A stretch of DNA of 64,000 nt from Heterotrichella gracilis (taxonomy: Eukaryota > Sar > Xanthophyceae > Tribonematales > Xanthonemataceae): the NCBI GenBank assembly GCA_032358255.1, contig JAULBX010009547.1:45411-109410 (forward strand), written 5' to 3'. The notes beneath the pieces were generated by a model. It was not told where the DNA came from, searched no databases, and worked only from the letters and a program-made list of their open reading frames with translations. The stretch's first letter is position 1. Every line of letters starts with the position of its first letter. Made by a program: the position numbers and the translations under genes. Below, piece by piece: positions 1-64,000 of the stretch.

Positions 1-71
1 GCATGGCACGCTCTTCCAGCTCTCTTTCCAATTACCCAGAATGCGCCACTGTGATTGTCTTTGGGATTTTG

Positions 72-280
72 TAAGGGCTTTGCAGCCTCCAATTTGGCAC
101 TGCAGAATGGCTGCCAGGCAAACCCTACAGACCCAAACCCGACCCTACCCAAACCCTAGACCCTAAACCCTATGCTGCCCCTTACCTCTCTGGGTGCTTG
201 TAGGGGTTGTGCAGCCCTGACTTTGGTACCGCTCGCAGGCTATCCACCCAAACCATACCCTACCCAAACCCTAACCCTAT
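72..280. repeat. Echo copies of the ALDH12 exon 2 end with telomere-like tracts
   Basis: Positions 171-247 are a near-identical copy of 278-354, which is the last ~60 bases of ALDH12 exon 2 plus its donor and first intron bases. A more decayed version lies at about 72-118. Between the copies run CCCTAAA-like tracts (120-170 and 248-280). The copies lie only in the intron downstream of the real exon. Confidence 0.85.
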
Positions 281-292
281 GCTGCCCCTTAC

Positions 293-8579: not shown

Positions 8580-11500
8580 ATGCCCATGGAGGAAAACCAG
8601 CTAACCTCATGCGAAGCCTCCTCGAGAGGGGCAGGGGAGTTGGAGCAGCTCGTGACTGTCATAGGGCGACTGGTGCATAAAAGGAAGCTGAGCAAGAACC
8701 TGGTGAGGACCCAGCTTTGGACCCACCGGTGCATGCAAAACAATGCACATGCATGCCATTGCTCAAAGCATGCAGGTTTTGCCTGGTATTGTTGCATTAT
8801 GTAGGCTTAATCCAGTGCAACTGATATAGAAGCTTTAAAACCTTTAGTAGCGGAAGCACTCACGGGTAGACTGCAAGGCGGTACCCCTTACGCCCGCATG
8901 CACTGCCAGGTTGAGTGTACTGTAAGTGCTGGTTCGTTTGGGTGGGCTGAAAGTTGACAGATGCGCAACCTTATTCAGGTGTTCATGGATGTGGCGTTAA
9001 TAGACCTCCCACAGGAACTGGAGGGGAGCGGAGTAGAGGTGGTGCTAAAGGGGGTGAGTTCCACACCCACGCACTGCACTTGCCATGTGTGTCTTCAATA
9101 CCCACACAGACTGCACCTGTGAAGTAGTTAGCAGTTGGGGTGTGGCAAGAAGTGGGCTGTGCAGTGTGTGATGCAAGAACGTGGGTGAACTGGGTGAGGG
9201 GCTTTGGACCCAAAACCCTAAACCCTTGGCTTGCGGTGAGCACAGTTGCTTGAATCACACGTGGAGGGTTTCTCTGATACCTGGTGCCATTTCCTTTGCA
9301 GTACAACGATCCTTTCACCACGAATGAAGTGCGGGACCTGCGAGACAAGCTCAAGTAAGGGCTTGCTGAAACCCTAAAACCTAAACCCTAAACCTGGCTG
9401 ACCACCAACCGGTGGCCACCACGCCTTGACGGGGTGTCTGAGGTGAAACCCTGCCCAGGAAAACCATTGGGCCTGCACACCACCAGCACTGTACCCATAG
9501 CACTTTGACCTCCATATCACTTGGAACCCCCACAGCCACTCGACCCCTTTACCTGTGCACGTGCATCGCACCGCCCTCACCCACTCTCAACACATCTGGA
9601 ACAATGGCTTCCAACCTCCAGCATATGCCATTTCCTCAACTTCACTTCTGCTACACCGGTTTCTGCACCGCTCTGCATCAATTTGGGGGATAGTCAAGCT
9701 GTGCGCGGGAGCCCGTCCAGCACTCTCGCTAACGTGACACCGGTGTTCTGCACCGCTCCCCCCGCAGGTTGGGGGATATGATAGTTGTGCTGGGGATGGT
9801 GTGCCCCACCAGCAGCAGCCTGGTGGCTCGCCAGGTGTCGGTCCAGCAGCCGTGGTGCGAGGGCGGGGGTTCCATCCACTTCAAGGCGCTGCGCCTCACC
9901 CATAGATGTAAGTGACTACCCCTGTTTAGGGTGTAGGGTTAATAGTTTTGGGGGTTTAGGGTTTAGGGTTAGGTTACACAGCAGACTCCCTGTGTGCACC
10001 CAAATGCCTAAATCCCTCTGCATCTAGTCATCGGCGATGCCCATGCATCTGCCTAGCCAGCAGCATGGCCGGGTGCGCGGGGGCAGCACTGCACCACTTC
10101 AGTGCGCTGCGCCTCACACATATCAATAGGTGCAAGCGCCGAGGCTACGCCGCAAAATAGGGCTGCTCTGTTGTGTGTCATCGCCACCGCGGCGTCCTGC
10201 AACACCCCCAAACATGCGTTGCCCCCCTGCTCTTCATCATGATCCTGTAATTGAATTCCGTCCATCACTATCCTGGCCTTTCCTGGTACTGTGCTGACTG
10301 TGCCCCTCCCCTTGCGCCTTGTAGTGGTGCCAGGCACATTGGAGATCGTGCCACCCCCTCCACCTAAGAAACCAGCTGCCACAGCGCCCGCCCATCCCCA
10401 ACCTGCTCCGCACCAGCCCCCGGGACAGCCTGCCAGGGATATAAATACCCAGCCCAGGGGCAAGCCCGCTGGGGATGCACCTGGCAGTGCTTCCTCGCCA
10501 CCAGCCAACGGCAGTGTGCGGGCATTACCTCCCCTTCAAGGACCTACTACCATTCTCCCCTGCCTCCTGGCGGTGGATGGCAGCTACCGCGCAGCAAACA
10601 CTCTAGCAAAGGGTTTCGACACGGCAGGGACAGGCCTCAACGCCGCCGGTGTGCGGGGCCAGGGCATTGCTCAGGAGTATGATCAGGAGTATGATCAGAA
10701 ACATGATCAGGAGTTTGATCACGATGCGCACCTTGCGTTGCGTGCCAGCTCAGCAGGTGGTGCACACCTGGCACAGTCCGCCAATTCAGACGAGGCATTG
10801 GAGGGACCCGGTGGGTTGCAAGATTGGCCAGGGGGTGACAGTGGTATGGGGTGCAGCAGGGCCCCGACGGAGGAATACCCCAGTCAAGGGCAGGCGCTGG
10901 AAAACCCTAGCGAGGGGCAAAGCATTGGCACCTCCCGCTCTGCTGGTGTGTGTAAGTTCTGGATCAACACCGGCACTTGCTTCAAGGGGGACGAGTGCCC
11001 CTATGCACACGTGGCGCTGCAGGTGGGAGGATACACCCTCACCCGCCTCTCAAATGCTTTGTGTTCCACCAATGCCCGCCATGCATACCCATTGGTTTAA
11101 TTTGATGTGAAGGGGGAATGGGAACTCAGGTCTTGAAATTGTGATCAGGAATGGAACAAGGCTTGCCCTGAACAGGTACAACTTCAAGACCCACCTAGGC
11201 CTGCCTTGGTGGTGCAAGCTGGGCTCGGCTGACTGCTTGTTGACTGTACTGCTGCAGTAACTATGTCACCATGTAATTGATCACCGTCCATTATAATGAG
11301 CAGAAACGTAAAGTTGCAAAGAATGTAGGTACGCTGAAGCGAGTAAACTGACATCATATCCACGTGTGGTTCCAGTCTGAAGTGAAGGGCGAGTGGGTGG
11401 CCTGGCGCAAGGGCACGCGCCGATCCGCGGCCGCGGCGCGCGGCGATCCGCATGCACATGACGCCACCCGCAAGCTTGAGCGGGCGGCGGTGTTCTGTTC

Positions 11501-27868: not shown

Positions 27869-27882
27869 TCAGTGCGCCGTGG
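27700..27882. repeat. Minisatellite, ~21-bp unit
   Basis: About eight imperfect copies of a unit like CAGAGCGCCCCACATCATGA run across 27700-27882. Units alternate CATCATGATC and CATCATAATC. The array overlaps the last coding bases and stop codon (27869-27871) of JMJD6, so length changes could alter its C-terminus or 3' UTR. Confidence 0.85.
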
Positions 27883-47700: not shown

Positions 47701-50700
47701 CGGTACCATCACCCCCCTGGTATCGGCATGCACACTCTGTGCAAGCAGTTCAACAAACAAACAATCAAGACTACCGATAATACCGCAGCTGACCATCGTT
47801 GTACGTGCGTGCAGATCAACGCTGCTGGCTTTACCATTGCCCCGCTGGTGCCTGCCTACACCCATTCGGGCAAGTCGACCGAAAGCCTGGTCACGCTGGT
47901 GATCAAGATGGACCTTGGGGGCTGGCTGGGTCCCGAGAGCTCTTTCACGCGCTACCTGCGCCCCGCAAGTGACCTTGCGTCGGTGGGGCTGTACGAGCAG
48001 ATCCTCCTGTCGGTCGTCATCCTGCGTGACGTGGTGAGTCAGTAAAGCAGATGTGATCACATTTGGGGTTGTTTTCAACCTGGCAGCTAGTTGTCTAATG
48101 GTTGTTTTGGGTACGAGCAGATTATCCTGTCGGTTGTCATCTTGCGTGACGTGGTGGGTTGACGGATCAGATGTAATCACATGTGGGGTTGTCTTCAACG
48201 GCACAATTAGTCATCTGATCGGTGATCCTTCTGTTGGTTGTCATTTTGCGCGACGTATGATCATTCTATGCGCCATGCATGATCATGTAACATGATTCAT
48301 GGTGGATGTGTTACATTGATCACTTGTCTGATCGGTGTTCTAGGCACATGATCAGGTGCAATGCTCGCCGCGTACTGCTTTCTTGGCACATCATAACTTG
48401 GCAAGTTTCCCTGCTAGGTTAATGCCCACATGCCATGTGGACGTTCACCAAGCAGGGAAGGCGGCCAGCTTTTGAAGTACCAAGCAAGCATTTGGTGACG
48501 CGCATGGCATCTGATCACATCTGGGGTTTAGACATGTATGGCATAAAATGTCTAAATTCCAATTGTGTGCAGGATTGTTTCATAAAGAAAATCCTAAACC
48601 CTGATTCCTGAACCCTAAACTGTGCAGGTGGAGCAGGATTGGTTCATCGTAAAGCCCCTGCACAAACACAAACCCTAAACCCTATTTTTTTGCATGCTAT
48701 CCACAAACGTTTTGACCCTAATCCTGAACCTAAACTGTGCAGGTGGAGCAGGATCGGTTCATCGTGAAGCCACTGTCGGTGGCGCAGACCCGAGGCGAGA
48801 AGGCTGCAGACCTGCCGCAAGAACAGAGGCTCAACATGCGCACGCTGTCGCGCGCACCAACCATGCTCACCAAGGCCAAGCTGGCTGAGCCTTCCGTTCC
48901 AAAGTGAGTGCTCATCGTGGTTGCCTAACATGTTGTGAAGATGCACCCTCGCGCCGAATTGCGTTCTGGTACCGTAAATGGATGTGAATCGTCATGGTCA
49001 TTCCCCACCAGGGGGTTTCGCCACCAGGGAGTCTCCCCATCCTGTCATTCAAGGCTGCTCTGGTCAGCAAGTAGTTGTTGTCAAAATGGTCAACACATGG
49101 TGTATGTGTAGTCCCAGGCTATATCTGCTTGTGCAAGGCCGAGTGCTGGAAATCTATGGAACTTACTATGTAGTTTGCACAGGATGTTGGATGGTGTGGC
49201 ATGCAACAAATACAACTTCAAGAAAAGACGGCGTGTGACTGTCTCAGATAGTGGCAAAGAGTAACAACGACAGTACAAAAAGGCGTCAGTAATAGCCAGG
49301 ATAGTAGCTAAGCGTGTTGTTTCCGCAGGATGTTGGATGGTGTGGCTGAGGAAGGCGAGGAGTTCCAGGAGGCTGCTGAGGAGCCTGGCGAGGCCAAGGC
49401 GTTCATCCAAGGCACCCTGGACCACGAGTACTGGAGTGACCCAGGCACATGCGACTTCAAGGTCCGCGGGCCAACCTACTTGACGGTAAGAACAGATAGC
49501 TGTTGTTCAACTTTTTTTATCTTTGCCTCTTTTTTATGCATTTGCATGAACAAGCATAGGCTGCGGTATGTGATTTAACCGGAAAAAAAATCAATTTAGC
49601 ATATAGATTCAATTATGTAGTATGTAAATCTTGTATTTGAATAGTAAGTTATGCAAATCATTTGTATAAATTTAATCGTATATTGTGATTATCCGTCCAA
49701 TTTCACAGGACAAGAAGAAGGTGTTTTCCGAGGAGCCCGTCTTCGAGCTGCTGGCCACCGACCTCATCAAGGTGGACTCAACCACCTGGCACATCGCGCG
49801 CTACCTGCCCTGCGTCACCGCCAGCACCGCGCCCTTCCTGTTCCTGCTCAACATCATCGTGCCCTCCAACCCCAACCTGTCCATGGTCATCACATGGGCG
49901 GCTGATTATGACCCCTCCAGGGCCAGCCAGATGCAGGGGGATGGCGATATGAGCGACGACGACCCGGAGGCCGACGCGTCGTTTGACCTCTCGCTGGCAA
50001 GGTGTGCAGGAATAAGAGTTATGCCTAATGCTATGTTGCTGCATTGAAGTACGCTTACAACTGCAACTGAAGGCTGCAAAAAGTGGCGCTAGCCAGGTCC
50101 AGCATTGGGTGATGCCATTGCTGTGCAGGAGTACATGGACCATGACCATCTGCAAAAAGTTCCATTGCTTGATATTGTTAACCACGGCATCGGCCATGCA
50201 TGAGCCTTCCTGAGAGTTTTCAACTTCAATCTATACAATCATATAATCTGCTCCTTTGCACTTATTGAAGCACACGGTTCAAGAACGACTGCTGATCTGG
50301 CCATACCGTCATTTTGCATCCTGCTAAAACACTTGTAAACCCACTCACTCTGTACCTTCCCGCAGGTTCCTGGCCGGTGACGGTGAGGAAGCTGACAAGC
50401 GGCGCAACGGCGTGTTCAAGCTCATCCCCCGCATCGCGCAGGGCAGCTGGGTGGTGAAGCAAGCGGTGGGCACAACGCCAGGTAGGGACATGGTGGCCAG
50501 GAAGGCAATGGCGGCCTTTTTCCTGACGCCTCGCCCACTGCTCCAAGACCAGCAGCGTGTTGGGATCAAGTTGTCTAAGTCAATGAATTTCTTCGTGTTG
50601 AAATCAAGTTTATCAAGTCAAATAATTTCTTTGAAGCATTTTACACAATTACTCGATTTTGGTTAGGTTTTAGAAGCAATCAGTTTCTTTATGTTCCAGT

Positions 50701-51848
50701 GCTGCTGGGCAACAAGCTGACCACTACTGTAAACAAAATTCCTAATAATTCAATCAACTTCATCATTCAGAGGGTGTTCACACCTGAGCTGTCCAGGAGG
50801 GACATGGGAGCACGCTTAGAAATTCCTGGGAGCTCCCAGCTTGGGGCCTGGGAGGAGCGCATGCTCCTAGCACATTTTTCACATTTCATTAGGATTCGCT
50901 TTTTGAGGATCACGTGGACGTTTTGACCAATTGGGTACGAGCTGATTTCAAATAGTTGATGACGTGGCGTTCATTTGTTGGCTAGGAGCAACCCAGGAGC
51001 ACCTCACCTGGGAGCACTCCCAGAGGGACCTGGGAGGGCTCCCAGAAATTTCTGGGAGCGACCTGGGAGCTCAGGATGGACGTATGTGAATACCCTCTTA
51101 GTAAACTTTATCTCCCCCTCCCCTGCAGTGCTGCTGGGCAACAAGCTGACCACCAAGTACTTCCGCGGCAAGGGCTACTTTGAGGTGGACGTGGACGTGG
51201 GCAGCAGCAGCGTGGCCAAGAGCGTGGTGGGGCTGGTCATGGGGGCAACAAAGTCGCTCATCGTGGACATGGGAGTACTCATGCAGGTGGGTAGCAGGGC
51301 TCCTGGCCTCACATGAACGATGATTTCATTTGCGGGAACCAGGCTCTGCGCATGAGTGGCTGTTGACCTGCTTGGGCATGCCCTGGGATGCGCAAGGAGG
51401 GTATCAGCCACTCATGAGGCAGCAGTATGGGGCTGGTCATGGGGGCGACCAAGTCGCTCATTGTGGACATGGGTGTGCTCATGCAGGTGGGTTTCAAAAC
51501 AGTTGGGATAGTGTATCACTCATGCAGGAGGGTAGCAGGGTAGCATCCATGTGCCCATCTGAGTCATCTCGTGCATGCACTTGAAGCTCCCAGTATACTG
51601 TGTGGGTACTGGGTGGCTTGGGCATTTGCGGCATGCCATTGAATGTTCTGCAATGTTGTATGTAACATTTGCATCGGGGCAGAAGGATAAGCATGTGAGC
51701 TGAACTTGGATCCCTGTCTCAGGGCAACCGGGGGGATGAGCTACCTGAGCGGCTGCTTGGGAGTGTGCGGTTTGAGAAGCTGGACCTGGATGCATGGACT
51801 TACCTCAACAAGGAAACGGGGGAGCTGGTGCCAAACAGCAAGCGCTGA
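44760..51848 (+). CDS. EDR2: EDR2-like protein: PH, START and DUF1336 domains
   Basis: Lipid-binding membrane-contact protein; Arabidopsis EDR2 (about 718 aa) restrains defence and cell death. Exons: 44760-45038, 45359-45565, 45762-45852, 46368-46534, 46899-47057, 47401-47520, 47815-48033, 48743-48903, 49329-49485, 49709-50001, 50366-50481, 51129-51286, 51723-51848; 750 aa, fully in frame. PH domain ~1-145 (LAGWLYRGADISDSLAKKRY through LWLETFARAI). START domain ~195-435 (SNWATVRHINGVSVYYEAVG, TWRQDPDGTYTVLFRSVN, ESLVTLVIKMDLGGWLG). C-terminal DUF1336 ~500-740 (CDFKVRGPTYLTDKKKVFSE, GSVRFEKLDLD). The donor at 45853 is GTCCGT, a weak site. Eight of twelve introns contain echoes of a neighbouring exon edge, and one contains a MITE-like element. 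Confidence 0.95.
45797..46075. repeat. ~135-bp tandem duplication across an EDR2 exon end, each ending in TTTAGGG
   Basis: Copy 1 (45797-45925) contains the true end of exon 45762-45852 plus its intron start. Copy 2 (45926-46070) repeats it (ACTTGGAAGGCGTGCACATT, GTCCCCAGCATGGAACCAGA). Both terminate in AGCAGTTTAGGGTTTAGGGTTT. The telomere-like tract therefore belongs to the duplicated unit. Confidence 0.93.
47664..47735. repeat. Echo of EDR2 exon 47815-48033 start
   Basis: ACCATCAACGCTGCAGGTTT, then ACCATCACCCCCCTGGT at 47678-47725 echo ATCAACGCTGCTGGCTTTAC and ATTGCCCCGCTGGT of the next exon. The copy contains a nested smaller duplication of GCAGGTTTCACC. Confidence 0.8.
48034..48265. repeat. 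Two echoes of EDR2 exon 47815-48033 end
   Basis: ACGAGCAGATTATCCTGTCG and GTCATCTTGCGTGACGTGGT at 48113-48157, and TGTTGGTTGTCATTTTGCGC at 48231-48250, repeat the real exon end and donor (47990-48038). The following intron block GTGATCACATTTGGGGTTGT is repeated too (48052, 48172), so exon edge and intron were duplicated together. Confidence 0.92.
48560..48700. repeat. Echoes of EDR2 exon 48743-48903 start with CCCTAAA tracts
   Basis: ACTGTGCAGGTGGAGCAGGA followed by TTGGTTCATCGTAAAGCCC at 48620-48660 duplicates the acceptor and first codons of exon 48743. A shorter trace (GTGCAGGATTGTTTCATAAA) is at 48566. AACCCTAAAC tracts occur at 48594, 48611 and 48671. Confidence 0.92.
49166..49210. repeat. 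Echo of EDR2 exon 49329-49485 start
   Basis: GCACAGGATGTTGGATGGTG followed by TGGC at 49178-49201 duplicates the acceptor and start of the exon at 49325-49347. No telomere-like tract is nearby. Confidence 0.85.
50690..50735. repeat. Echo of EDR2 exon 51129-51286 start
   Basis: CCAGTGCTGCTGGGCAACAA then GCTGACCACTACTG at 50696-50729 copies the acceptor and first ~30 bases of the exon at 51129. The MITE-like element (50769-51098) is inserted between copy and exon. Confidence 0.9.
50769..51098. mobile_element. MITE-like non-autonomous element, ~330 bp
   Basis: The ends AGAGGGTGTTCACA (50769) and, reading the opposite strand from 51098, AGAGGGTATTCACA match at 13 of 14 positions as terminal inverted repeats. 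Internally the element carries further inverted GGGAGCTCCCAG/CTGGGAG motifs and no coding capacity. Target-site duplication is unclear (at most 2-3 bp). The size, inverted ends and intronic position fit a MITE; the superfamily is not assignable by eye. Confidence 0.7.
51345..51497. repeat. Echo of EDR2 exon 51129-51286 end, plus a short inverted repeat
   Basis: TATGGGGCTGGTCATGGGGG and AAGTCGCTCATTGTGGACAT at 51425-51472 duplicate the real exon end, continuing through CTCATGCAGGTGGGT. Just upstream, CATGAGTGGCTG (51351-51362) and CAGCCACTCATG (51405-51416) form an inverted repeat. Confidence 0.9.
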
Positions 51849-52973: not shown

Positions 52974-55515
52974 TCATCCCAAAACAGTCTGCGTCGGCGA
53001 CGTGTCCCTTTTCCAGTGTGCCAGGTGCGTAGGTGGAGGAGGTGCGGGGACGATGCGCCATTGCTGCTGTAACTCGGCAAGGTCTTCCTGCGGGACAATA
53101 TACCATGCAGTCAATATACCATGCAGTCAAGCTATTACCAGTAGGTTTGCACGAAAAGAACTTGATTACTGGCCGGTGTGCGGAAGCCTTTATTGTAAAT
53201 GCAACCTGTCATTTCCTCAGCAGTACAGCATATGAGCACTCACCTAAATCACTTGTTCAATCGACTAGTATTAGGCCAATTGAGATGCAACTAAAACTCA
53301 CACCCGTCCAATTGGGTTCATATTCGCTGTCATGCAAAAGGAAAGAACTTCCCCCAGCTGACATGGACATGGAATCCGCACCTGCAAGTGCCTTTCGTAG
53401 TAGATGCACATCAGGTCTGCGCACTGGGTCCCGGTGCGCAGCGCCCAGGGTATGTGGTCCCTCAGGAGCACCTCCCTGTCGCTAGACTTGAGCCGGTACT
53501 GGGCCCCAAGCACTGCCAGGGCCGTCATGGGCAGGCCTGTCTGCAAGTCACAAGGGGCGCGGGGTGAGCATGCGCATCCCGGCGAGAGATTGACGGGGAT
53601 TGGGACCTGACAGCGACTGGTTTGATTGAAGGAGATTGGCCCCAAACCGCCAACACATTAGTCAATATGGGCCAAGCACCATGGCGCTGATGACTTCAGC
53701 CCCAAGCAATCCATGCAACCCTGCACAGATGACGTGTGCAACTTCATGGCCTGCTGTGCCAGCTCCCCAAAAACCCTAAACCATGACCGTGAGCATGCGC
53801 ACCGCACCCAGGCAGATGTCGAGTGACTGGCGGGGATTGGGGGCTCGACAGCAATCATTTTGGACCCTAAGGAAATTAAGCCCAAAGGTCAACATATTAT
53901 CCCAAAGGGGGTCGAGCACCACTATACTGATGGCTTGGGTCTCCAAGCAATTTCCGCAACCCTGCACAGGTGACCTGTGCTTCATGGCCTGCTGTGCCAT
54001 TTTCCCAAACACCCTATTTCATGACCCCTAGATGCTAGGTTACCTGCGCAAACTCCAGTGCCTTGAGCGCCAGCTCCCCATACACGTTGGTGTGGCAGTC
54101 CAACAGCACGTGCCAGAAGTCGTGCACCTCCCGGGCGCGCTGCGCAATATAGGCAAGCTCCTCGTCATCCACCAACCGCACTGTGGGGCGATCGTCCGCT
54201 TGGAAACTTCGGTCCCCCATGAAATTAGCATACGCCAGGCCAAAAGAGTGCTCAGGCATCCGCCGAGCAAGCGCGAGCGTGTCGTTCTGGACACAAGAGA
54301 GGGACACGTAAGCAGGTGAGTAACCTTTAGGTAAGCTGCTGTGGTTGCTGTGCTACTATGCAGCAAGGCCTTTGCGCCAATTTCCCGCCCTGTACAAACC
54401 CTAAACCCTAAAGGCTGCCCATTCCGTCAACAGGCGATGGTGCCGTACTTGCCAGCTGAGGCAATTATGAAGCAGGTGCACATGCAGAGGCCCCACAACA
54501 TGTCAAACTGCATTAGAATGTAGGATGCGCAACAAGCCTCGCACCCTGGGCATGTGCTAGGGGTCAGCGCTGCACTGTTTTAGGGTTTTGGGTGAAGGTT
54601 CAGGGTTTGCAGCCCGCAACATGCCAACGCACCGTCACCCTGGGGCGGTCCCGCAGCACGTCTCTGCCCTCTGCAGAGGCCAGCATGCGGTTCCGCATGC
54701 CCTGCAGCGCAAACACGCCTGCGCCACAGTGCCCACGTCAGGTAGGGTTTAGGGTATCATATAGAGCTAAGGGCTTCCCTGTGTTTGACGTGCGGCTGCA
54801 CCAAGGTTACCCCCACCTAAAGTCTGCAATGTATACCTGTGCTGCCTGAAAACACCTGCACCATAGTGCTCGGGTCGTTTCCGGTGTTTTGCAGATATGC
54901 AGCTCCACCACCTCTGCCTCATGTTTTTATTCTTTGCAACATAAGCAGCTGCTGCTGTTGAGCTCAACGTGGGAGTGAGTGGAGAGGCTAGCACACCCAC
55001 ATACCTCATTAGTGCATGCTTACCTGTGGTCTCCCCTAGCGCGGCCACCAAGTCGGCCCTAGCCGGCCTGCACAGCCAATGCACAGCACTGACTCACAGG
55101 GACTCGCAGACAGGCAGGCGGGGTTGACATGCAGACAACAACGAGCAGTGACCTGGCAAACACTGCTTGCAGAAACGCACATTGTGCATAGCAGAATGTT
55201 TGCTTGAGTGCTTTATGGGGTTGTAGAAGCATGGTGGGGCCATGATAGGGCCACGGTAGGAGCGAGGTAGGCAAGCGTGTTTGAATGGTGTGTGGGATGG
55301 CAGAGGCATGGTAGAGCTATGGTAGGGATAGGGCCACGGTACAGCAGGGTATACAAGTTTGCGGTAGTGCTGCGTGGGATGTAGCCCCTGTCCATGCACG
55401 AGCCATGAAGCTATCTGTCGCTGCCACCGTACCTTCGCAGCGCTCCCAGGGCTGACAGCAGAGCAACGGCACCCTTTTGCAGCCCATTCAAGGGAACGTG
55501 GGTAGGGTACGGCAT
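52974..55515 (-). CDS. COQ4: Ubiquinone biosynthesis protein COQ4
   Basis: Mitochondrial matrix-side protein of the CoQ synthome that organises coenzyme Q synthesis. Exons from the 5' end: 55515-55433, 55067-55024, 54718-54633, 54286-54044, 53540-53382, 53087-52974; 242 aa with all phases matching. Family blocks: THVPLNGLQKGAVALLSALG, DLVAALGETTG, MRNRMLASAEGRDVLRDRPR, VDDEELAYIAQRAREVHDFW, TGLPMTALAVLGAQYRL and IPWALRTG...CIYYERHL. The HDxxH-x11-E metal motif is intact in VHDFWHVLLDCHTNVYGE. The C-terminus is Pro-rich (IVPAPPPPTHLAHW). The start at 55515 gives only a short pre-sequence (MPY), so a longer mitochondrial leader in an upstream exon is possible. The divergent neighbour channel gene starts 431 bp away. 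Confidence 0.95.
53570..54035. repeat. ~235-bp tandem duplication inside a COQ4 intron
   Basis: The block from ~53575 (GGGGATTGGGACC, AGATTGGCCCCAAA, CAATCCATGCAACCCTGCAC, TTCATGGCCTGCTGTGCCA) is repeated from ~53815 to 54030 (GGGGATTGGGGGC, CAATTTCCGCAACCCTGCAC, TTCATGGCCTGCTGTGCCA). AAAACCCTAAACC sits at the join (53770-53782). Divergence between copies is substantial. Confidence 0.85.
54840..54875. repeat. Short echo of COQ4 exon 54633-54718 start
   Basis: GAAAACACCTGCACCATAGT at 54848-54867 resembles AAACACGCCTGCGCCACAGT at the true acceptor (54711-54730). A GTAGGGTTTAGGGTATC tract at 54742-54758 lies between them. Confidence 0.6.
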
Positions 55516-55946
55516 CTGTGTCGTTGTTAAGGTATGTGTGTTGTATTTTGCCTCGGTACCTGGTTACACGAATGCATGCATACACCCCATACTGCAGTGA
55601 AATGTCTAAAGTAGCGCACGATAGAAGAAACGTCGGTACTCGATACCTTGAAAACGAATGCCTTCGAACCCAAATGCAGGTATCGGCAGAACAGAAGTGT
55701 TATAAGTATGTTTCCTGGAAAAGTTTCCTCGACATCGCCCTTCCACACCTACCTCGTGAGCTGCAACCCTGCCACCAAACATTGAATGGTGCTCGTTTGA
55801 CCAGTGCAAACCATAAAGGGATCAGCAGAACAACCGCAGCCGTGACTGTGTGCACAGTCAAGCGTTTATCAGCTTCTCAACCCCACGCAGAGGTCATCAT
55901 CGCCCGGCATGCGGTGACACATCGTTGATTTCATGGGTGCTACGAG
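55516..55946. promoter_or_regulatory. Divergent promoter interval COQ4 / channel gene
   Basis: A 431-bp interval between opposing start codons. No recognisable core promoter motif. A short ATG-initiated frame at 55600-55675 ends at a GTATCG site but cannot be spliced in frame to the channel gene. Confidence 0.4.
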
Positions 55947-58900
55947 ATGGCGGGTATCTGCGCTCGAAGCTCTCCAACAGCCAGGGCTGCTTGGCCTGCT
56001 GCTGCGCACCCTCGGTTAAGAGCCTTTACTGGGTTGCGGCAGCTGACCTTGCCCGTAGCCCAAAGCCGCAGGAAAACTCGCAATAGGTGAGGGAATATGA
56101 TCTCAGCATATGCATGCGTTTACGAACGGGTTTCCTCTTGGTTGCTTGCCACCAGACGTGCACAAATGAGCCTTTCTTGCTGGGGGTAATCGTTAGCCGT
56201 ATAATACAAGCGTTCACACTGACAAACGTTTTCAAAAACGTCCTTAGCTCTAGACACCAACAAAATGCCTCACGATTGGATCTGACAAGTGGGATCGCTC
56301 AGCAGGCCCAGCAGGCTCAGCAGGCACGTGGTGTGCGTGGCCAACCCTAAGGACAGGAGGCAGGGCGGCAACCAGTCCTTTGAGGAGCTGAACAAGCCCC
56401 TGGAGCAGCTGCTGAGGGAGGAGGCGGCAGCACAGGAGGGCGCTGGCTGGTTTCAGAGGGTGCAGGTAGGTACAAGAGGGATACACCCGCGCCTCAGTTT
56501 AGGTTCAGGGTAGAACAGGAGGGGATACACCCACGCCTCTGTTTGACTACAACTTGCGGGTGTATATATGGAGCTGAGGAGCAAGGCTGGTTTCAGAGGG
56601 TGCAGGTAGGTACAGGCAGGCAGGGCCAGACCCTAGGGTAGAACAGAAGGAATGCACCCATGCCTCTTCTACATCTTGTGGGTGTGTATGAGGGGTACAA
56701 AGGGCAAGGCCGATGCCAGAGGGTGCCTATAGATGCATTTTTCTCTCAGTGTGCCTGTACGTGCTCCCGGTGGACTAACCTCTGCCTACCTCTGTCCTAC
56801 TCTTACCTGCAGTGACAGTCGTTACCATGGTGACTTACCCCACTGATCCCACCCTATTACAGGATGCAGCAGGCAGGCTCAAGTACAAGTACTACAACTG
56901 GAGGCAGGACACCTGGAACGACCTGGGCCTCTTTGCCTTGGCCAACTTCAGCGTCATCGTGCTGGGTACCCTGGTGCGCGAGGCTGTGCAGGCGCTGGGC
57001 AGGCGCGAGCTGGTGGGGGATGAGTCTGAAAACTGGTGGAGCTTTGCGTACGGGGTGCGTGCATACCATCTGGGGAGCAGGCGGGTGCAGCAGGATTAGG
57101 GTATAACTTGTAGGGTTTGGTTGTTTGTCATTGCTAACCTCAGCATCATCGTGTTAGGCACCCTGGTGCGCGAGGCTGTGCAGGCGCTGGGCAGGCGCGA
57201 GCTGGGTGGGGATGCGTCTGAGAACTGGTGGAGCTTTGCGTACGGGGTGCGTGCTGGAGCAGATGATCAGACTTTAGGGTTTAAGCTTTAGGGTTAGTTT
57301 AGGGTTTTTGAGGATAGTTTGTTTGCCCTCGCCATGGTCAGTGGGTTCCCTGGTGCGGCAGGCTGTGCAGGCGCTGAGCCGGCGCGAGCTGGGTGGGGAT
57401 GAGTGTGAAAACTGGTGGAGCTTTGCGTACGGGGTGCGTGCTGGGGAGCAGATGATCGGGGTGTAGGGTTTGGGTTTAGGGTTTTTGTGGATAGGGTGTT
57501 GTCCTGGCGCCAAGTCCAGTGGGCACACTGGCGCTGGGCAGGCGCGAACTGGCTGGGGATGAGTCTGAGGGCTGGTGGGGCTTTGCATACGGGGTGCAAA
57601 CAGGGGATCGCAGGGGTTGAACAGGACTGACTAGGTGTGGGGTGTAGGCCAGCCTGGCTAACTTTGGTACTTGTTCCCAAGTGGAAATAAGAATTACTTA
57701 CTGAGACCCTAAAGAACATAAGGCACTGCCCGTTGCGCAGGTGAAATGCCGCTGTTTAAACCCAATCATTTATTGACAAACCAAGTCAATTTGTGCAGGT
57801 GACGGTGAACATGTTTGGGGAGAACTTCCCCACCTACGACTCCACCCTGTTTGAGCAAGTGTCGTCGCTGATGATCGCCACAGTGGGCCTGGCGGGGTTT
57901 GCGCTGTCGCTGGCGCTTGTGGAGCAAGTGGTGCTGGAGATTATCGACACCAACGTCAAGCAGGGCAGCAGGATATACGAGACGGGGCATGTAAGGCCGC
58001 AAAATATTATTGTGCATTCCGGTGTTGCCAGCGATGGGCAGATCCTTGTTGTGAGCGGATGGTGCTGGGGTGGTCCTCTTTCTTGCATTTAAAGCGTATT
58101 GATCGGAGGCTGTGTAGATGTGCATATGTAGTGATGTTGCATATTTATACTTTGTTGAATGGTTTATCAAGGATTTTATCTGTCCATATATGCTTTTGCT
58201 AAAGCCAGGTTCTATTTCATTCTACTATTGTAAATTTACACAGTTGATGCTGCTGGATTGGTACGAACCCAGCTTGACCTCATCCCCATTGGTCAGGCTT
58301 TAAACACGAATTTTCGTATGAATTTGAATGTTAACCCTATTTCTCTTCCATTGTGCCCGGGTGGTGCTGCTGGGTTGGTGCAAGGACCAGCCTGACCTCA
58401 TCCCCATTGGTCAGGCTCAAAAAATGGATTTCACGTTGCTTTGTTTACCCTATTTCTACTTCATTGTGCACAGGTGGTGCTGCTGGGTTGGTGCAAGAGC
58501 CAGCTTGACCTGGAGACCATCGAGCAGGTTCTGGTTCAGCTGTGCAACGCCAAGCGCCACGTGGGGGGGTGCACGGTGGTTGTGCTGAGTGAGCGTGAGA
58601 AGCTGTGGATGGAGGCGCACTACCGGAGGAACATCCCGGAGAGCAAGCGCTTCAACTCGCAGTTTGTGTTCAGACAGGTGGGACAGTGGTGGTGGTGTGG
58701 TGGTGTGTTTGTGTGGGTTGGGGATATGGGGTGGGGAGGAGGAGGGGCGATGTGTGGTGGTGGGGAGGAGGTCGTTACCCACAGCCTGGTATGATGAGCA
58801 CAGTCAATTTTGGGTGATCACTGTGCAATGACCAGTGAGTCAATCTTTAGTCTTGCCAGGACAAGGGCTGATGGTGAGTGGTCAGTGTACAGCAATGAGT

Positions 58901-61900
58901 GTTTGCTGACCAGCGATGGGCATGTGTGCACGGCTCCCCGCTAATAGTGAAAGGCAGGGCAATCTTAGCAGCAGCATCAGTCATCAGTATTACAGCTGAT
59001 CAATTTTCAATTATGAGTGATCGCTGATCAGCGCTCGCGTGTGTGCAGGGCTCCCCATTGGTTGTGAAGGACCTGCGCATGCTGGCCATATCCACGGCAT
59101 CATCGGTCATCATCGCATCCGATTGCTCAAGGTAAGCTCGATTTCCCTGGGTACAGGGTATAGCACCTGACCATGAACTCTAAACCCAGACCTTAACAAC
59201 CTACAAATCCTCAAACGTTGAGGATTGTACCACAATTTCTGAACCCCAACCCCTATGTGCTGGACGCCCGAGGACACCGACAACCAGGTGCTGCGCACCT
59301 CAAACCCTAAACCCAACCTTTAGATGCCAAAATGAATTGGGTTATTTCTTCATCATATTATCCACAGAAACCCTACACCCTGTTTGCCCCCCTTGCAGGA
59401 CACCCAAGGAGGCGGATAATCAGGTGCTGCGCGCATCTGTGCTGGTGGATGAGCTCGACTTCCCAGGGTGCAGGGTATAGCACCTGACCATGGACCCCAA
59501 ACCCTCAACCTAAAACCCCTCAACCTGAAACGCTGAGGAAAAGATGTAAATTCCTGAACCTCAAACCTTATCCGCAGGACGCCTGAGGAGGCAGACAGCC
59601 AGGTGCTGCGGGCATCGGTGCTGGTGGATGAGCTCGACTTCCCTGGGTATGGGGTTGAGGACACCCGCAAGGGGCACATAGTGGCGGAGGTGCGGGCCAC
59701 TGGCTCTATCCCGCTGTTTGACTACAGCTGCTCGCCGCGGGTGATGCCAGTGCCATCCACGGGGCTCAACGCACGCAGGTAGGGCACTCCTCGACTCTAA
59801 GCCCTTGACCCGGGATTCCAGTTCTGTACCTGAGCTGCATGGTGGTGCAGTGCTGGTAAAGTCTGGTCAATGTGGCAAATGTGGTATGCATTTGCATGCA
59901 TGGCACTCCAGCACGGTGTGGGTCCATCTCCTGCAGGATGCGGAACTACGCCACCAACATGCTGTGCTACAAACATTTTACCTTCAATTTACTTTCATTT
60001 ATCTTCATGTATTTGTATGCTGTGGAACTACGCGGCAACACCCAAAAACCAAAAAAATACATTTTGTTCCAGTAGTATCTACCCCTTGACCTCCAAACTG
60101 TATCCTGTTTTTTTACAGGATCAGCCGCATCGTGAAGCACCCCATCCTTGCCTCCATCTCCCGGAAGATGTGGAACTACGCAGCAAACACGCAGTGCTAC
60201 CTGCAGGGTTTCCCGCAGCTGGCGGGGGTGCCCTACGGCGAGCTGGCATACTACTTCCCCGATGGCACTGTGCTGGGCCTGTTTGACAGCACAAGCGGCG
60301 AGGGTACGTCCACATGTTGTAGGGTTTGAAAGGAAATGGTCTACTTTTCTGATGGGTTCAGCCCCCTTGATGACATTTCGCGTTTCCCCGGGTTACTCGG
60401 GAGGGTAACCCAGCATGTGGTCTGGTTTGAAAGAAAACGAAACTATTTCTATCTAGTTCATCCCCCTTGATGTTATGTCGCGATTCCCAGTTCAATGCTG
60501 TGCTTTGCAGGTGCATTTAATCCACCCGCTGACACAATCACCAAGGAGACCGATCTGCTTGCCGTCATGCGCCCCACTGACATCCCCTTCAACGAGTACC
60601 AGCCCCTGGCGGAGCCCATCCGGTTGGAAGGTGATCAGACGCCTCTTACAGTCACACTTGATTACACTCAACTGCACTCGATCACACTTCATCCGGTGGG
60701 AAGGTGATTGAAAATATCTTGAAGCCTATCCACCCATCCGATTATAAGGTGATTGGGCTTCACCTACACAGTCATTGCAATTGCAGCTATTGTAGCTCTT
60801 GGTGCAGGGAGTGGTGTGCGCAGTCACGCGCCCTGCGCAGTTTAGTCAGATCCCTGGCCAGCCGCATACTGGATGACGAAAAATAGACAAAAGATAGCAA
60901 AACAGGGAAATGCAAGTGCAAATCCTGATATATTAAAATATTGAATAAACCGTTAAAAGACACAACAGCAGACTTTTCTCATCAAAATGGCAGATTTAAA
61001 AGGCAGTCCACAATTCCAGAGGAATGTTGAAAGTAACACAGTAGAATAGGTAGACAAAAGCACACCTCACCCACCATCACCACATGCGCAGACAGCGCGT
61101 GAAGCTCTCCACCTACATGCGCGTGCAGCGCAGCAGGGCGGGATTCCTGGCCAGCCGCTCCCTGCATGACAATCCACAAATCAAGAAGAAAAATGATAGT
61201 AATTCATTGGAACAGGTAGCATTAAAAGCACAATTTACCCACCGCTTACCCCTCCACCTGCGCAGACAGCATCGTGAAGCTCTCCACCTACACGCGCGTG
61301 CAGCGCAGCTCGGCGGGATCCCTAGCCAGTCACTCCCTTGATGACAGCGATCCTGGCTTGGCGCCCGGGTCGGAAGGCGCCCTGCCCCCGATCGACATGC
61401 CCGAGCTGTCCCCTTTCATGGCTGGGCAGCAGGAGTCGTGGGTGGGCCAGTACATGCTGCCGCTGGAATATTGCTACACAAGCGCCATAGACGAACCCGA
61501 GGTGGGTTGATTGATAAACCCGCTGCCAAAACTTGTTTGCTGTGCTGCAGCGGGTCCTTGCATGTGTGCGGGTGGGGCGACGCCACTTCTGATCCAACCT
61601 GCTGAGGAAGCTCTTTAGTGCGCATGTGCAAGTACAAATGAAACAGGAATTCCATTTTCATGTTCAATCTCACTTCCTTTCAACTGCTTCATGTGTGCTG
61701 CGCAGCGTGTGCTTGTGTGCAATTGGGGCGACGCCAGCTTCATGCGCAACCTGCTGGGAGAGCTGTTTCACCGCACATGTGCAAGTACACAGAACAGCAG
61801 GGTTGCAAAATTTAGGTTTTCTTACTGTTTCATGTGTGCTGCGCAGCGTGTGCTTGTGTGCGGGTGGGGCGATGCCAGCTTCATGCGCAACCTGCTGAGG

Positions 61901-63936
61901 GAGTTGGACCACGGCCCTGCATCGCTCACCGCAGGATCAAGGATAACCCTGTTCAACGACCACGACCCAGCGGTGGTGGCATCGCAATGGAAGCGCTCTG
62001 TGCATGTAGGGGGAACCCTAAACCCTAAATCATGACCTTTTGAACATGAAAAAAGTACAGTATTGGTGGAGGCAGCAGCTTAGTATATTCAACGCCTTTA
62101 ACATGTGCCCTGTATCCTTTCAAACATTGGTTTTGTTGTGCCTCCGTCTGGCTCTGCACAGCATTGTCTGAATGGCCACCCACTCACTCTTCAACATACT
62201 CACGTCAGTCAATCAATCATTCGTGCACTTCAATTATTTTTGCTCTGTGCAGCTGCGCAACATCGTGGTTGACCACGTGCGCGGCGACCCCCTCAACCTC
62301 CACCATCTGCATGAGCGTGTAGAGGTGTCAGGTCCACTTTTTCTTTCAATTTGTAGCAAAATGATGTGCCTCCTTAGGGTTGCAATCAATTTTATTATTA
62401 ATCATCATTATCAATTTTGTGTTTCGCTCCATTGCAGCTGCGCAACATCGTGGTTGACCACGTGCGGGGCGACCCCCTCAACCTGCACCACCTGCACGAG
62501 CGCGTGGAGGTGTCGGAGTTCCGCGCCGCCATCGTGGTGTGCGATATGACCTGGCTGGACCCCGATGAGGTGGAGGGCAACGGGATCCAGCTGGAGTCGG
62601 TGGATGACATGCTGCGCCTGGACTGCATGATCATGATGGTGCAGCTCATCATACGCAAGCTGCTGCAGGTGGGGGGAACCTAAACCCTATGCGCTGAACC
62701 CTAATATAAACCCTAAATAGGGTGTGATTGGAATTGGTGATGACATGCTTTGCCTGAACTGCATGATGACATCATCGCGCGCCCTTAACCCTAAACCTTA
62801 AACCCCAAACCGAAAACGCCAAAACTACTGCAGAATCTCGGGTTCCCTGACATCAACATCATCGGGTGCCCTGCCTCCTAAATATCAAACCCTAAACCCT
62901 AAATCCCAAACCCACTGCAGGACCGCGGGTTCCCCGACATCAACATCATTTGCGAGCGCCTCACGGTGGGAGGCACCCTCACCCGGTTCGAGGACCAGGA
63001 GCGGGTCCCCATGGGTGTCAGCTTCAACATGACCAAATACTCTGCAAATGTGCTTGCGCATGTGGCCATCAACCCGCTGTACCTGGGGCCAATATCGGCA
63101 TTTGGGCGGGAGAACTACGTGGCTGTGCAGGTAGGCACTGGCAGGGGACCTAGAAGTGTAGGATGATGCGTTTCCACTGATTAACACCCAAGTGTGTCCG
63201 ATATGGAATAGCTGCTGCCATCGGCGTGAATGACACCAACAACCATACTCTCGCCATTCCTTAGGACTAATACAGTATCGTCATCCATTTATTTGTTTGC
63301 TTTGCTGTGCAGGACTCGTCGGGGTATGCTGAGCAGGCTGAGAGGCTGTCATACTGGGAGCTGGCGGTGAGTGGGTGGTGGGATGGGCGCAGGAAAGGGG
63401 ATGTTGGGAGATGTTGCAGGGTTGGGATTTGTAGGCTATCATACCGGCGATGGGCTGTGCAGACTCAAGTGCTCGCCACTGATGTCAACAGCACCCTGAT
63501 GGGCTTCTGCCCTGTCCCCAGACCCTAAACCCTAAAACCTTCATCCTAAACCTTGAGGGTGTGGTACGCGCGTTGCGAGTTCTCAGGCACACCACTGACA
63601 CCATCCTGGCTTTCACCGCGCATGCAGTTCTGGCTGCGCACCCACCTGTGTTTCTGGAAAGTAAGGTTCCAACCGACTGTTACATATTTGACTAAAACCT
63701 ACTACCTAGCGAGTTAGAAACTAATGACTCTACTACCTAGCGATTTAGAAACTAATGACTCTACTACCTAGCGATTTAGAAACTAATGACTATCCAGCTG
63801 AAGTGACTGACGGCGTGCAGGCCCGTGTGCGCGCCTCTGACAGCACCCTAATAGGGTTTTACCGCATCCCCGCCAGCCAGCAGGAGGCTGTGGGGCTGGT
63901 CATCAACCCACCTGCAGCATGGAGGAGCGTCAGGAG
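55947..63936 (+). CDS. CASTOR/POLLUX/PEC-family ion channel (partial, 3' end outside window)
   Basis: RCK-domain cation channel family of nuclear or plastid envelopes. Visible exons: 55947-56086, 56357-56465, 56863-57054, 57799-57990, 58474-58677, 59049-59131, 59578-59778, 60119-60303, 60511-60630, 61266-61501, 61847-61999, 62438-62668, 62921-63130, 63313-63366, 63821-63936; about 808 aa so far, in frame. The first exon encodes a Ser/Ala/Arg-rich leader (MAGICARSSPTARAAWPAAA) resembling a chloroplast transit peptide, so a plastid-envelope PEC-like role is inferred. Hydrophobic spans: LGLFALANFSVIVLGTL and SLMIATVGLAGFALSLALV, with a pore-like segment ENWWSFAYGVTVNMFGENFP between. RCK-type repeats: QVVLLGW... 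region, GSPLVVKDLRMLAISTASSV, NYAANTQCYLQGFPQLAGVP, and VLVCGWGDASFMRNLLRELD. Nearly every intron carries exon echoes. The last visible donor (63937) opens into a poly-G run. Confidence 0.9.
56440..56735. repeat. Triplicated exon 2 end/donor segment in the channel gene
   Basis: GCTGGTTTCAGAGGGTGCAG with GTAGGTACA recurs from the real site (56445-56475) at 56586-56615, and degraded at 56705-56735 (GCCGATGCCAGAGGGTGCC). The intervening GAACAGGAGGGGATACACCC block is repeated as well, giving a period of about 130 bp. Confidence 0.88.
57105..57610. repeat. Three graded echoes of channel exon 56863-57054 end, each trailed by TTTAGGG
   Basis: The exon end and donor (GAGGCTGTGCAGGCGCTGGG ... TTTGCGTACGGGGTGCGT) recur at 57141-57252, 57345-57442 and 57527-57600. 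Copy 2 is followed by ACTTTAGGGTTTAAGC and GGGTTAGTTTAGGGTT, and copy 3 by GTAGGGTTTGGGTTTAGGGT. Copy 4 is the most diverged and has lost its donor. This is the longest echo ladder in the window. Confidence 0.95.
58238..58425. repeat. Two echoes of channel exon 58474-58677 start
   Basis: GGTGGTGCTGCTGGGTTGGT followed by GCAAGGACCAGCCTGACCT at 58361-58400, and GATGCTGCTGGATTGGTACG at 58246, copy the acceptor and first ~35 bases of the exon at 58474. They share a CATCCCCATTGGTCAGGCT block absent from the true exon, so copy 1 and 2 are sisters. Confidence 0.92.
59150..59577. repeat. Two echoes of channel exon 59578-59778 start among CCCTAAA tracts
   Basis: AATCAGGTGCTGCGCGCATC, then GGATGAGCTCGACTTCCC at 59417-59465 duplicate the exon start, with a usable TTGCAG acceptor at 59393-59398. 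A more decayed copy is at 59258-59298 (CGACAACCAGGTGCTGCGCA). The CAGGGTATAGCACCTGACCA block is repeated at 59154 and 59470. AAACCCTAAACCC-type tracts lie at 59304 and 59496. Confidence 0.92.
59930..60045. repeat. Two partial echoes of channel exon 60119-60303
   Basis: GATGCGGAACTACGCCACCA then ACATGCTGTGCTAC (59937-59970) and GTGGAACTACGCGGCAACAC (60023-60042) echo GATGTGGAACTACGCAGCAA and ACACGCAGTGCTACC from the interior of the downstream exon (60168-60202). Here an internal exon segment rather than the edge was copied. Confidence 0.85.
60330..60500. repeat. Tandem ~93-bp duplication in a channel intron
   Basis: GGTTTGAAAGGAAATGGTCT ... CCCCCTTGATGACATTTCGC GTTTCCC (60327-60395) is followed by GGTTTGAAAGAAAACGAAAC ... 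CCCCCTTGATGTTATGTCGC GATTCCC (60424-60488). It is purely intronic. Confidence 0.8.
60685..60880. repeat. Echoes of channel exon 60511-60630 end and exon 61266-61501 start
   Basis: CATCCGGTGGGAAGGTGATT (60691) and CATCCGATTATAAGGTGATT (60736) echo CATCCGGTTGGAAGGTGATC at the exon 60630 donor. Then 60811-60880 (CCCTGCGCAG, TCCCTGGCCAGCCGCATACT) is the oldest copy of the start of exon 61266. Confidence 0.82.
61070..61170. repeat. Echo of channel exon 61266-61501 start
   Basis: GCGCAGACAGCGCGTGAAGC followed by TCTCCACCTACATGCGCGTG and CAGCGCAGCAGGGCGGGAT at 61085-61143 matches the exon start at 61262-61320, with the acceptor conserved. The copy could be spliced in as a near-duplicate exon because its frame stays open. 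Confidence 0.92.
61545..61800. repeat. Two echoes of channel exon 61847-61999 start
   Basis: Copy at 61692-61795 (GTGTGCTGCGCAGCGTGTGC, GGGGCGACGCCAGCTTCATG, CGCAACCTGCTGGGAGAGCT) and copy at 61538-61630 (GCTGCAGCGGGTCCTTGCAT, GGGTGGGGCGACGCCACTTC) repeat the exon start, acceptor included. The 61692 copy encodes NWGDASFMRNLLGELF with no stop for about 30 codons. Confidence 0.93.
62010..62332. repeat. Echo of channel exon 62438-62668 start
   Basis: GTGCAGCTGCGCAACATCGT then GGTTGACCACGTGCGCGGCG and ACCCCCTCAACCTCCACCAT at 62247-62310 is a 90%-plus copy of the exon start at 62434-62492, with a good acceptor. AACCCTAAACCCTAAATC lies at the beginning of this intron (62014-62031). Confidence 0.93.
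62680..62920. repeat. CCCTAAA-rich intron with an echo of channel exon 62921-63130 start
   Basis: ACTGCAGAATCTCGGGTTCC then CTGACATCAACATCATCGGG at 62825-62866 echoes the exon start (CTGCAGGACCGCGGGTTCCC). Also GGTGATGACATGCTTTGCCT, GAACTGCATGATGA (62735-62770) echoes the previous exon's GTGGATGACATGCTGCGCCT. CCCTAAA/CCCTAAACC tracts occur at 62682, 62698, 62712, 62786 and 62888-62912. Confidence 0.9.
63455..63560. repeat. Decayed echo of channel exon 63821-63936
   Basis: TGCTCGCCACTGATGTCAAC then AGCACCCTGATGGGCTTCTG at 63468-63508 echoes GTGCGCGCCTCTGACAGCAC and CCTAATAGGGTTTTACCGCA. It is immediately followed by AGACCCTAAACCCTAAAACC (63521-63540). Confidence 0.75.
63699..63791. repeat. 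31-bp minisatellite, three copies
   Basis: The unit CTACTACCTAGCGATTTAGA followed by AACTAATGACT is repeated head to tail at 63699, 63730 and 63761, with one base difference in the first copy. It lies in the intron just upstream of exon 63821. Confidence 0.95.
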
Positions 63937-64000
63937 GTGGGGGGGGGGGGGGGGGGGGTGGGTGGTGGTGGTGGCCCCCCTGCAGTTATGTTAAGCCGGG

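What the first reader, a model, noticed from the sequence alone, without database searches (positions are those of the whole stretch)
1..64000. Recurrent 'exon-edge echoes' in introns coupled to short TTTAGGG tracts
In at least nine of the genes, introns carry one to three diverged copies of the neighbouring exon edge, splice site included. They lie always on the intron side and in the same orientation. I located roughly forty echoes, and many directly abut CCCTAAA/TTTAGGG tracts. In one case (45797-46075) the tract is part of the duplicated unit. Ladders show divergence rising with distance, implying repeated rounds. Ordinary tandem duplication would not obviously prefer exon edges or add telomere motif. 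A repair or template-switch process, possibly involving telomerase-added repeats at breaks near splice sites or R-loops, could produce both. I know of no named system for this.
Basis: partly seen in the sequence, partly recalled or inferred. Interest (0 to 1): 0.9.

Follow-up and report, generated by a model that had tools for sequence, protein, structure and literature searches.

The report
Telomere-tagged exon-edge duplications in algal introns
In a green alga's genome, many introns hold decaying copies of the neighbouring exon edge, often with short pieces of telomere repeat attached; they look like scars of DNA repair that made local duplications, which splicing then hides.

Summary
In 314 kb (window plus 250 kb from five other contigs) there are 104 local direct repeats and 21 inverted ones, 20 of them hairpins. 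After dropping one suspect cluster, 50 clusters join an exon edge to its intron and 10 are intron-only.

Telomere tracts are tied to them: introns with an echo carry a tract in 25 of 60 cases, others in 30 of 320, and the excess survives matching by region and length. 22 of 92 tracts have direct copies abutting both sides, against 0 of 362 mismatched flanks and 3 of 360 intron positions. A late check changed my odds: 17 of those 22 have a second telomere-like stretch outside the copies, against 21% expected, so the tract is mostly part of the duplicated unit. Five look like a single tract between copies, the form expected if telomerase extended a broken end.

Exon-edge preference is partly geometry; a 2.5-3.7-fold excess in odds remains. 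R-loop orientation is not supported.

Best reading: repair-born local duplications, tolerated because splicing removes the extra copy, recurring at edges that carry telomere tracts. The parts are known; the combination and density look new.

The parts
9876..10122 (+). donor-side echo: exon end 9876-9904 repeated at 10094-10122 in the intron; tract 9952-9970 between
   Evidence: 90% over 29 bp; sequence
23793..24067 (+). donor-side echo: 23793-23922, tract 23923-23938, copy 23942-24067; single tract between copies
   Evidence: 85% over 130 bp; abutting-copy score 158; nothing telomere-like outside the copies
24652..24917 (+). acceptor-side ladder: copies at about 24655 and 24761 of the exon start at 24861, telomere-like filler between
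   Evidence: 86% far and 84% near, against the distance trend
29603..29819 (-). acceptor-side echo without a tract
   Evidence: 88% over 34 bp
30062..30369 (-). exon-edge pair 30062-30159 / 30253-30349 with tracts 30230-30240 and 30359-30369
   Evidence: 87% over 98 bp; 9 of 12 exon differences at third codon positions
32592..32969 (-). ladder of exon-edge copies with tracts 32664-32674, 32877-32891, 32894-32909
33932..34221 (-). acceptor-side echo; tract 34047-34064 between copies, apparently decayed tract in the second copy
   Evidence: 75% over 161 bp; alignment
45793..46069 (+). unit 45793-45926 and copy 45927-46069, each ending in a TTTAGGG tract (45908-45926, 46052-46069)
   Evidence: 84% over 144 bp
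47991..48199 (+). donor-side echo without a tract
   Evidence: 83% over 89 bp
48598..48775 (+). acceptor-side echo; tracts 48611-48620 and 48670-48684
   Evidence: 90% over 63 bp
51228..51492 (+). exon-end pair; all 5 exon differences synonymous; 66-bp hairpin 51351-51416 in the spacer
   Evidence: 92% over 65 bp
53583..54026 (.). pair in a stretch without a gene model; tract 53771-53782 at the end of the first copy
   Evidence: 72% over 211 bp
56932..57597 (+). donor-side ladder of three echoes at offsets 193, 380, 540; tracts 57273-57307 and 57472-57484
   Evidence: 94, 93, 88% to the exon edge; extra copies absent from five homologous proteins
58239..58511 (+). acceptor-side ladder of two echoes, no tract
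   Evidence: 90% near, 84% far
59135..59648 (+). acceptor-side copies; tract 59302-59314; degenerate telomere-like spacer 59470-59573
   Evidence: single copy in five homologous proteins
61541..61906 (+). acceptor-side ladder of two echoes, no tract
   Evidence: 90% near, 78% far
62248..62514 (+). exon-start pair; all 6 exon differences synonymous, no tract
   Evidence: 93% over 82 bp
62592..62949 (+). two adjacent echo pairs with tracts within 62679-62717, 62787-62797 and 62887-62903
   Evidence: 85% and 79%

Best explanation
The echoes are local direct duplications (mostly 80-230 bp) left by break repair, for example fill-in and joining of breaks with long staggered ends. A duplication that crosses an exon edge survives because the spliceosome goes on using the original site and removes the second copy with the intron; the copy then decays. 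Intronic telomere tracts, themselves probably old insertions made at breaks, mark hot spots: the duplicated unit usually includes the tract, and tract-bearing edges are duplicated again, giving ladders with the youngest copy next to the exon. In a minority a single tract sits between the copies, as if telomerase had extended the broken end in the same event. Shown: duplications, their size and orientation, neutral decay, the tract link, and the tract inside the unit in most cases. Inferred: staggered breaks, telomerase action, tracts as cause of recurrence, and the order of steps.
For: Direct orientation (104 against 21); edge clusters have median offset 143 bp, 48 of 50 between 79 and 230. 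Tract link: 25 of 60 echo introns against 30 of 320; 21 of 72 intronic tract clusters flanked by a direct repeat against 56 of 1145 intron positions; 9 of 25 tract loci elsewhere in the genome against 82 of 2880 control positions of all classes. Abutting copies at 22 of 92 tracts, 19 separate loci, against 0 of 362 and 3 of 360. In 17 of these 22 (14 of 19 loci) a second telomere-like stretch lies just outside the copies, against 21% at matched places beside 68 tracts without abutting copies. Genome-wide, two-unit tracts in the same orientation 80-110 bp apart give 224 raw hits; the two opposite orientations give 10 and 4 raw matches (8 and 3 sites); the same orientation at 400-430 bp gives 30. 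Recurrence: 7 edges with two or more echoes in the set checked against 1.6 expected. Neutral decay: mismatches by codon position 122/110/167 of 962-967 each; echo splice dinucleotides kept at 49 of 61, exon-side dinucleotides 47 of 61, intron control dinucleotides 34 of 52.
Against: 29 of 50 edge clusters have no telomere-like stretch, so the tract is not needed for most. 70 of 92 tracts show no abutting copies. No allele or relative without the insertion could be compared, so order is inferred. The residual exon-edge excess is not explained, nor why regions differ so much.
Confidence: 0.5

Rival explanations
1. Telomerase addition is part of the same repair event as the duplication: a staggered break is extended with TTTAGGG, filled in and joined, leaving copy|tract|copy; outer tracts come from later rounds or neighbouring events.
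For: Single tract with nothing telomere-like outside in 5 of 22: 23923-23938, 57472-57484, C46 36310, L048, L001. L048 is the cleanest: 27-bp copies at 96%, abutting a compound 34-bp tract on both sides. Telomerase domain on C626. Mammalian precedent with target duplication.
Against: 17 of 22 have a second telomere-like stretch outside, far above the 21% expected, including L042 and L043, which first looked clean. L001 abuts on one side only (21 bp apart on the other). Break bases in register with the repeat: 2 of 4 loci looked at (L043, L048 yes; L042, L001 no).
Confidence: 0.3
2. Ordinary tandem duplication and independent tract insertion, both merely tolerated in introns and both denser in some regions; the link is a by-product.
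For: Echo pairs and tracts fall together over the six regions; C24 has 68 introns with neither.
Against: The association remains within regions and length classes (Mantel-Haenszel odds ratio 4.4), and copies abut tracts.
Confidence: 0.09
3. The tracts are functional cis-elements (telo-boxes or splicing signals) kept by selection.
For: Tracts within 50 bp of a donor: 36% against 18% expected. Telo-boxes in plant promoters are known (PMC10167121, search listing only).
Against: No clear 5' bias along genes: mean relative intron rank 0.485 for 55 tract introns against 0.50 for 366, first-third share 42% against 34%; orientation mixed, 50 against 34.
Confidence: 0.04
4. Assembly artefact.
For: One cluster, C13 4476-5255, has 98-99% copies beside a 100-N gap and is probably an artefact.
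Against: No N in the window; identities are graded, mostly 70-93%.
Confidence: 0.02

Closest known systems
Short interstitial telomeric sequences inserted at double-strand breaks in mammals (PMC2246262; PMC7215372)
   Same: Short canonical telomere stretch at an internal site; some insertions show direct duplication of the target, put down to staggered breaks (passages read).
   Different: There duplication is a minority class (6 of 130 rodent, 4 of 25 primate, 3 of 66 horse loci). Here 22 of 92 tracts have abutting copies, mostly with the tract inside the repeated unit, and tracts favour introns; in PMC7215372 the human share in introns (31%) is read as random.
Patch-mediated tandem duplication in rice (Vaughn and Bennetzen 2014, not read; cited in PMC7971508 and PMC7407515)
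   Same: Direct tandem duplications, enriched at 50-200 bp, attributed to repair of adjacent nicks (passages read).
   Different: The passages read mention no telomere repeats; here 21 of 50 edge clusters have a telomere-like stretch, and exon edges are over-represented.
Direct repeats near intron borders (PMC11782384; abstract and section list read)
   Same: Direct repeats at exon-intron borders explained by break repair.
   Different: Repeats there are 4-30 bp at the two borders of the intron; here one exon edge is copied into the intron, and the 380 introns tested show no whole-intron register.

Membership tests
Telomerase-made interstitial telomeric insertions at breaks | Short internal stretch of the organism's own telomere repeat | tested here: met
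   TTTAGGG x6 arrays occur on 16 contigs, on six of them within the first 10 bases in the orientation of a chromosome end; lengths of the other contigs were not obtained. 107 tracts in 314 kb, longest 22 bp
Telomerase-made interstitial telomeric insertions at breaks | Insertion relative to an orthologous locus without the tract | not testable with these tools
   The genome search states that no relatives are held
Telomerase-made interstitial telomeric insertions at breaks | Break-end modification, including target duplication around a single tract in some loci | tested here: inconclusive
   22 of 92 tracts with abutting copies, but only 5 of 22 without a second telomere-like stretch outside
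Telomerase-made interstitial telomeric insertions at breaks | Bases at the break in register with the added repeat | tested here: inconclusive
   2 of 4 loci
Telomerase-made interstitial telomeric insertions at breaks | Telomerase reverse transcriptase present | tested here: met
   PF12009 on C626, 54.9 and 41.2 bits
Patch-mediated tandem duplication | Direct orientation and 50-200 bp size | tested here: met
   104 direct against 21 inverted pairs; median offset of 50 edge clusters 143 bp
Patch-mediated tandem duplication | Perfect tandem copy relative to the ancestral allele | not testable with these tools
   No ancestral allele available
Intron gain by AGGT tandem duplication | Upstream exon end equals intron end, and intron start equals next exon start | tested here: not met
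   380 introns; best in-register identities 0.60 and 0.50 against 0.49 and 0.47 in shuffled pairs

The most novel reading that the evidence does not exclude
In this alga, breaks with long overhangs fall preferentially near splice sites and telomerase routinely takes part in their repair, so that introns grow by successive exon-edge duplications tagged with telomere repeats; some of the copies are then translated as extra or alternative exons.
Probability: 0.2. Interest if true: 0.82.

Novelty: new variant of a known kind. Interest (0 to 1): 0.58.

Why it matters
If right, introns in this lineage keep a readable record of DNA breaks and local duplications, many of them tied to telomere repeats far from chromosome ends, at a density where they can be counted and tested in strains. 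It would give a concrete route by which introns lengthen and by which duplicated exon edges become raw material for alternative exons, and would show whether short telomere tracts are a cause or a product of such duplications.

Tried and rejected
Whole-intron gain by AGGT tandem duplication: not seen in 380 introns. R-loop orientation: 34 G-rich on sense against 50 C-rich. Promoter-type telo-boxes: no clear 5' bias. Selection against decoy splice sites in echoes: no sign, 49 of 61 kept where the partner is intronic; 11 of 11 where both copies were called as junctions, which is true by construction. Tract-free echoes as merely decayed tract echoes: telomere scores of edge clusters are two-peaked, 21 of 50 at 32 or more (18 of the 21 with a strict tract) and 29 at 22 or less; yet echo introns without a strict tract score a little higher than other introns (Mann-Whitney p = 0.0002, not length-matched). 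The degenerate score is not fully specific: three permuted motifs reach 26 in 36% of tests in echo introns against 9% in others, so I lean on strict tracts. Naming the species: proteins point to trebouxiophyte green algae; the ribosomal RNA search did not complete. A first gene finder ran whole contigs together and was replaced.

Rows dropped: cluster C13 4476-5255 (beside a 100-N gap) is left out but is. C57 13462-13896 (internal repeats) is left out only. Pairs with offset below 60 bp are left out of the clusters. L034-L036 were picked because they show paired tracts and are not in the counts. One of 93 tracts and 2 of 70 lay too near an end. The contigs sampled come from the list of contigs with a (TTTAGGG)3 match, so they are not a random draw, though the 50-kb stretches were set without looking.
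Full report
WHAT WAS CHECKED. The window is G000:C97:45411-109410 of a 68.5-Mb eukaryote genome in 903 contigs. Proteins place it among trebouxiophyte green algae: best matches Botryococcus, Trebouxia and Symbiochloris for one gene; for another, Myrmecia bisecta has the highest identity, 80%. The genome is not given as a file, so I worked on 314 kb: the window and 50 kb from each of C2, C13, C24, C46 and C57. I wrote a small gene finder trained on these sequences; its splice sites came out clean (AG|GTGAG, TGCAG|G), with 71 genes, and 368 introns of median 290 bp in the training set. The later intron table, with a lower score cut-off, has 380. These are predictions without RNA data.

THE ECHOES. 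Self-comparison gives 104 direct repeats at offsets of 40-700 bp and 21 inverted ones, 20 of them hairpins. With offsets of 60 bp or more they form 75 clusters: 51 exon-plus-intron, 10 intron-only, 14 others. One edge cluster beside a 100-N gap is probably an artefact, leaving 50. Their offsets are narrow: median 143 bp, 48 of 50 between 79 and 230. Acceptor-side and donor-side cases are 23 and 15, with 12 in which both copies were called as exon; of the 38 clear cases 29 cross the splice junction. Five homologous algal proteins have one copy of three peptides that my model repeats in the gene at 54032-63936, which supports calling the extra copies echoes.

NEUTRAL DECAY. In exon-against-intron pairs, mismatches fall on codon positions as 122, 110 and 167 of 962-967 each (ladders and the N-gap cluster included). 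That fits an unconstrained echo plus silent change in the exon. Echo splice dinucleotides are kept in 49 of 61 cases, the next two exon bases in 47 of 61, a dinucleotide 8-10 bases into the intron in 34 of 52.

EXON-EDGE PREFERENCE. I simulated duplications placed at random in genes, kept those that splicing could tolerate, let them diverge with the exon copy constrained, and applied the same detection threshold. With the observed unit lengths, intron-only cases should be 40-43% of those detected; with other unit lengths 38-53%. Observed: 10 of 60 (probability 1.6e-5 to 9.2e-5), 7 of 33 outside the window (0.008 to 0.019), 7 of 26 among copies of at least 85% identity (the script printed 0.02 to 0.08 for 7 of 27). 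So much of the preference is geometry and detection, with an excess of about 2.5-3.7-fold in odds that is weak in the youngest set. Errors in gene models could add to it.

THE TELOMERE LINK. TTTAGGG is very probably the telomere repeat: six-fold arrays occur on 16 contigs, on six of them within the first 10 bases in the orientation of a chromosome end. I could not get the lengths of the other ten contigs. Internal tracts lie mostly in introns, 84 of 107, though introns and intergenic sequence have about equal length here. Introns with an echo have a tract in 25 of 60 cases, others in 30 of 320; stratified odds ratio 4.4; within region and length classes 25 observed against 14.6 expected, not reached in 5000 permutations. 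Intronic tract clusters are flanked by a direct repeat in 21 of 72 cases against 56 of 1145 intron positions; outside introns 3 of 19 against 11 of 1166 (intergenic) and 1 of 2 against 15 of 569 (exon). At 25 tract loci elsewhere in the genome 9 show it. 21 of 50 edge clusters contain a telomere-like stretch against 83 of 1000 random exon/intron windows; that score is not fully specific (see Tried and rejected).

THE JUNCTION. With telomere words masked, 22 of 92 tracts (19 separate loci) have a left flank ending, and a right flank starting, with the same sequence; 0 of 362 mismatched flank pairs and 3 of 360 intron positions reach that score. Such a structure can mean that the tract was inserted together with a duplication of the target, or that a unit carrying a tract at its end was duplicated. 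The two differ in what lies outside the copies. In 17 of 22 (14 of 19 loci) a second telomere-like stretch lies just outside, against 21% at matched distances beside 68 tracts without abutting copies. So the tract is usually inside the repeated unit, as at 45793-46069 and in the C13 5622-6007 ladder. Five cases lack it: 23923-23938, 57472-57484 (part of a ladder), C46 36310, L048 and L001. L048 is the cleanest, with 27-bp copies at 96% abutting a compound 34-bp tract on both sides; L001 abuts on one side only. L042 and L043 looked clean at first but have weak telomere-like stretches beyond the second copy.

GENOME SCALE. Two-unit tracts in the same orientation 80-110 bp apart give 224 raw hits, of which 100 were listed; the two opposite orientations give 10 and 4 raw matches (8 and 3 sites), and the same orientation 400-430 bp apart gives 30. 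The 224 count overlapping matches and some array hits (C140, C173). This also fits tracts carried inside tandem units.

LADDERS. Anchored on the exon edge, the nearest echo is the most alike, or within a point, in 6 of 7 one-sided ladders; 24458-24917 is the exception. With 50 clusters on 760 edges about 1.6 edges with two or more events would be expected at random, so events recur at the same edge.

READING. Tandem duplications are the commonest source of insertions in one rice study, enriched at 50-200 bp, and are put down to repair of adjacent nicks (PMC7971508, passages). Telomeric insertion at breaks, with target duplication in a minority of loci, is described in mammals (PMC2246262 and PMC7215372, passages). 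The alga appears to combine repair-born duplications with intronic telomere tracts that are mostly copied along and may provoke further rounds. Whether telomerase acts in the duplication event itself stays open: 5 of 22 fit it directly. Searches for a report of telomere tracts tied to exon-edge duplications, or in introns of green algae, showed none in the listings; most subscription papers are missing from that library. I call it a new variant of a known kind.

WHAT STAYS OPEN. Why regions differ so much (echo introns 31 of 99 in the window, 10 of 38, 10 of 69, 6 of 55, 3 of 51, and 0 of 68 in C24). Why 29 of 50 edge clusters have no tract. Whether six pairs with 38 of 46 exon differences at third codon positions (picked after the fact) are translated.

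Noticed in passing
window 62248-62514, 51228-51492, 59395-59648, 30062-30349, 23793-24067; C2 region 21116-21609: Six duplicated exon-edge pairs have 38 of 46 exon differences at third codon positions, as if both copies were under protein-level selection; chosen after the fact.
   Followed up: partly
C24:250001-300000 against the window: Echo and tract density vary together between regions, from 31 of 99 echo introns in the window to 0 of 68 in C24.
   Followed up: partly
window 40843-40955, 48349-48517, 51351-51416, 51038-51059: Hairpins (73-100% paired arms), perhaps MITE-like (recalled label); the one at 51351-51416 lies in the spacer of an exon-edge pair.
   Followed up: no
G000:C13:104476-105255: 98-99% identical repeats beside a run of 100 N, probably a misassembly.
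   Followed up: partly
window 63699-63791, 19459-19590, 27697-27878: Short-period tandem repeats of 31, 32 and 21 bp.
   Followed up: no
G000:C626:23723-24513: Telomerase RNA-binding domain in two matched stretches.
   Followed up: no
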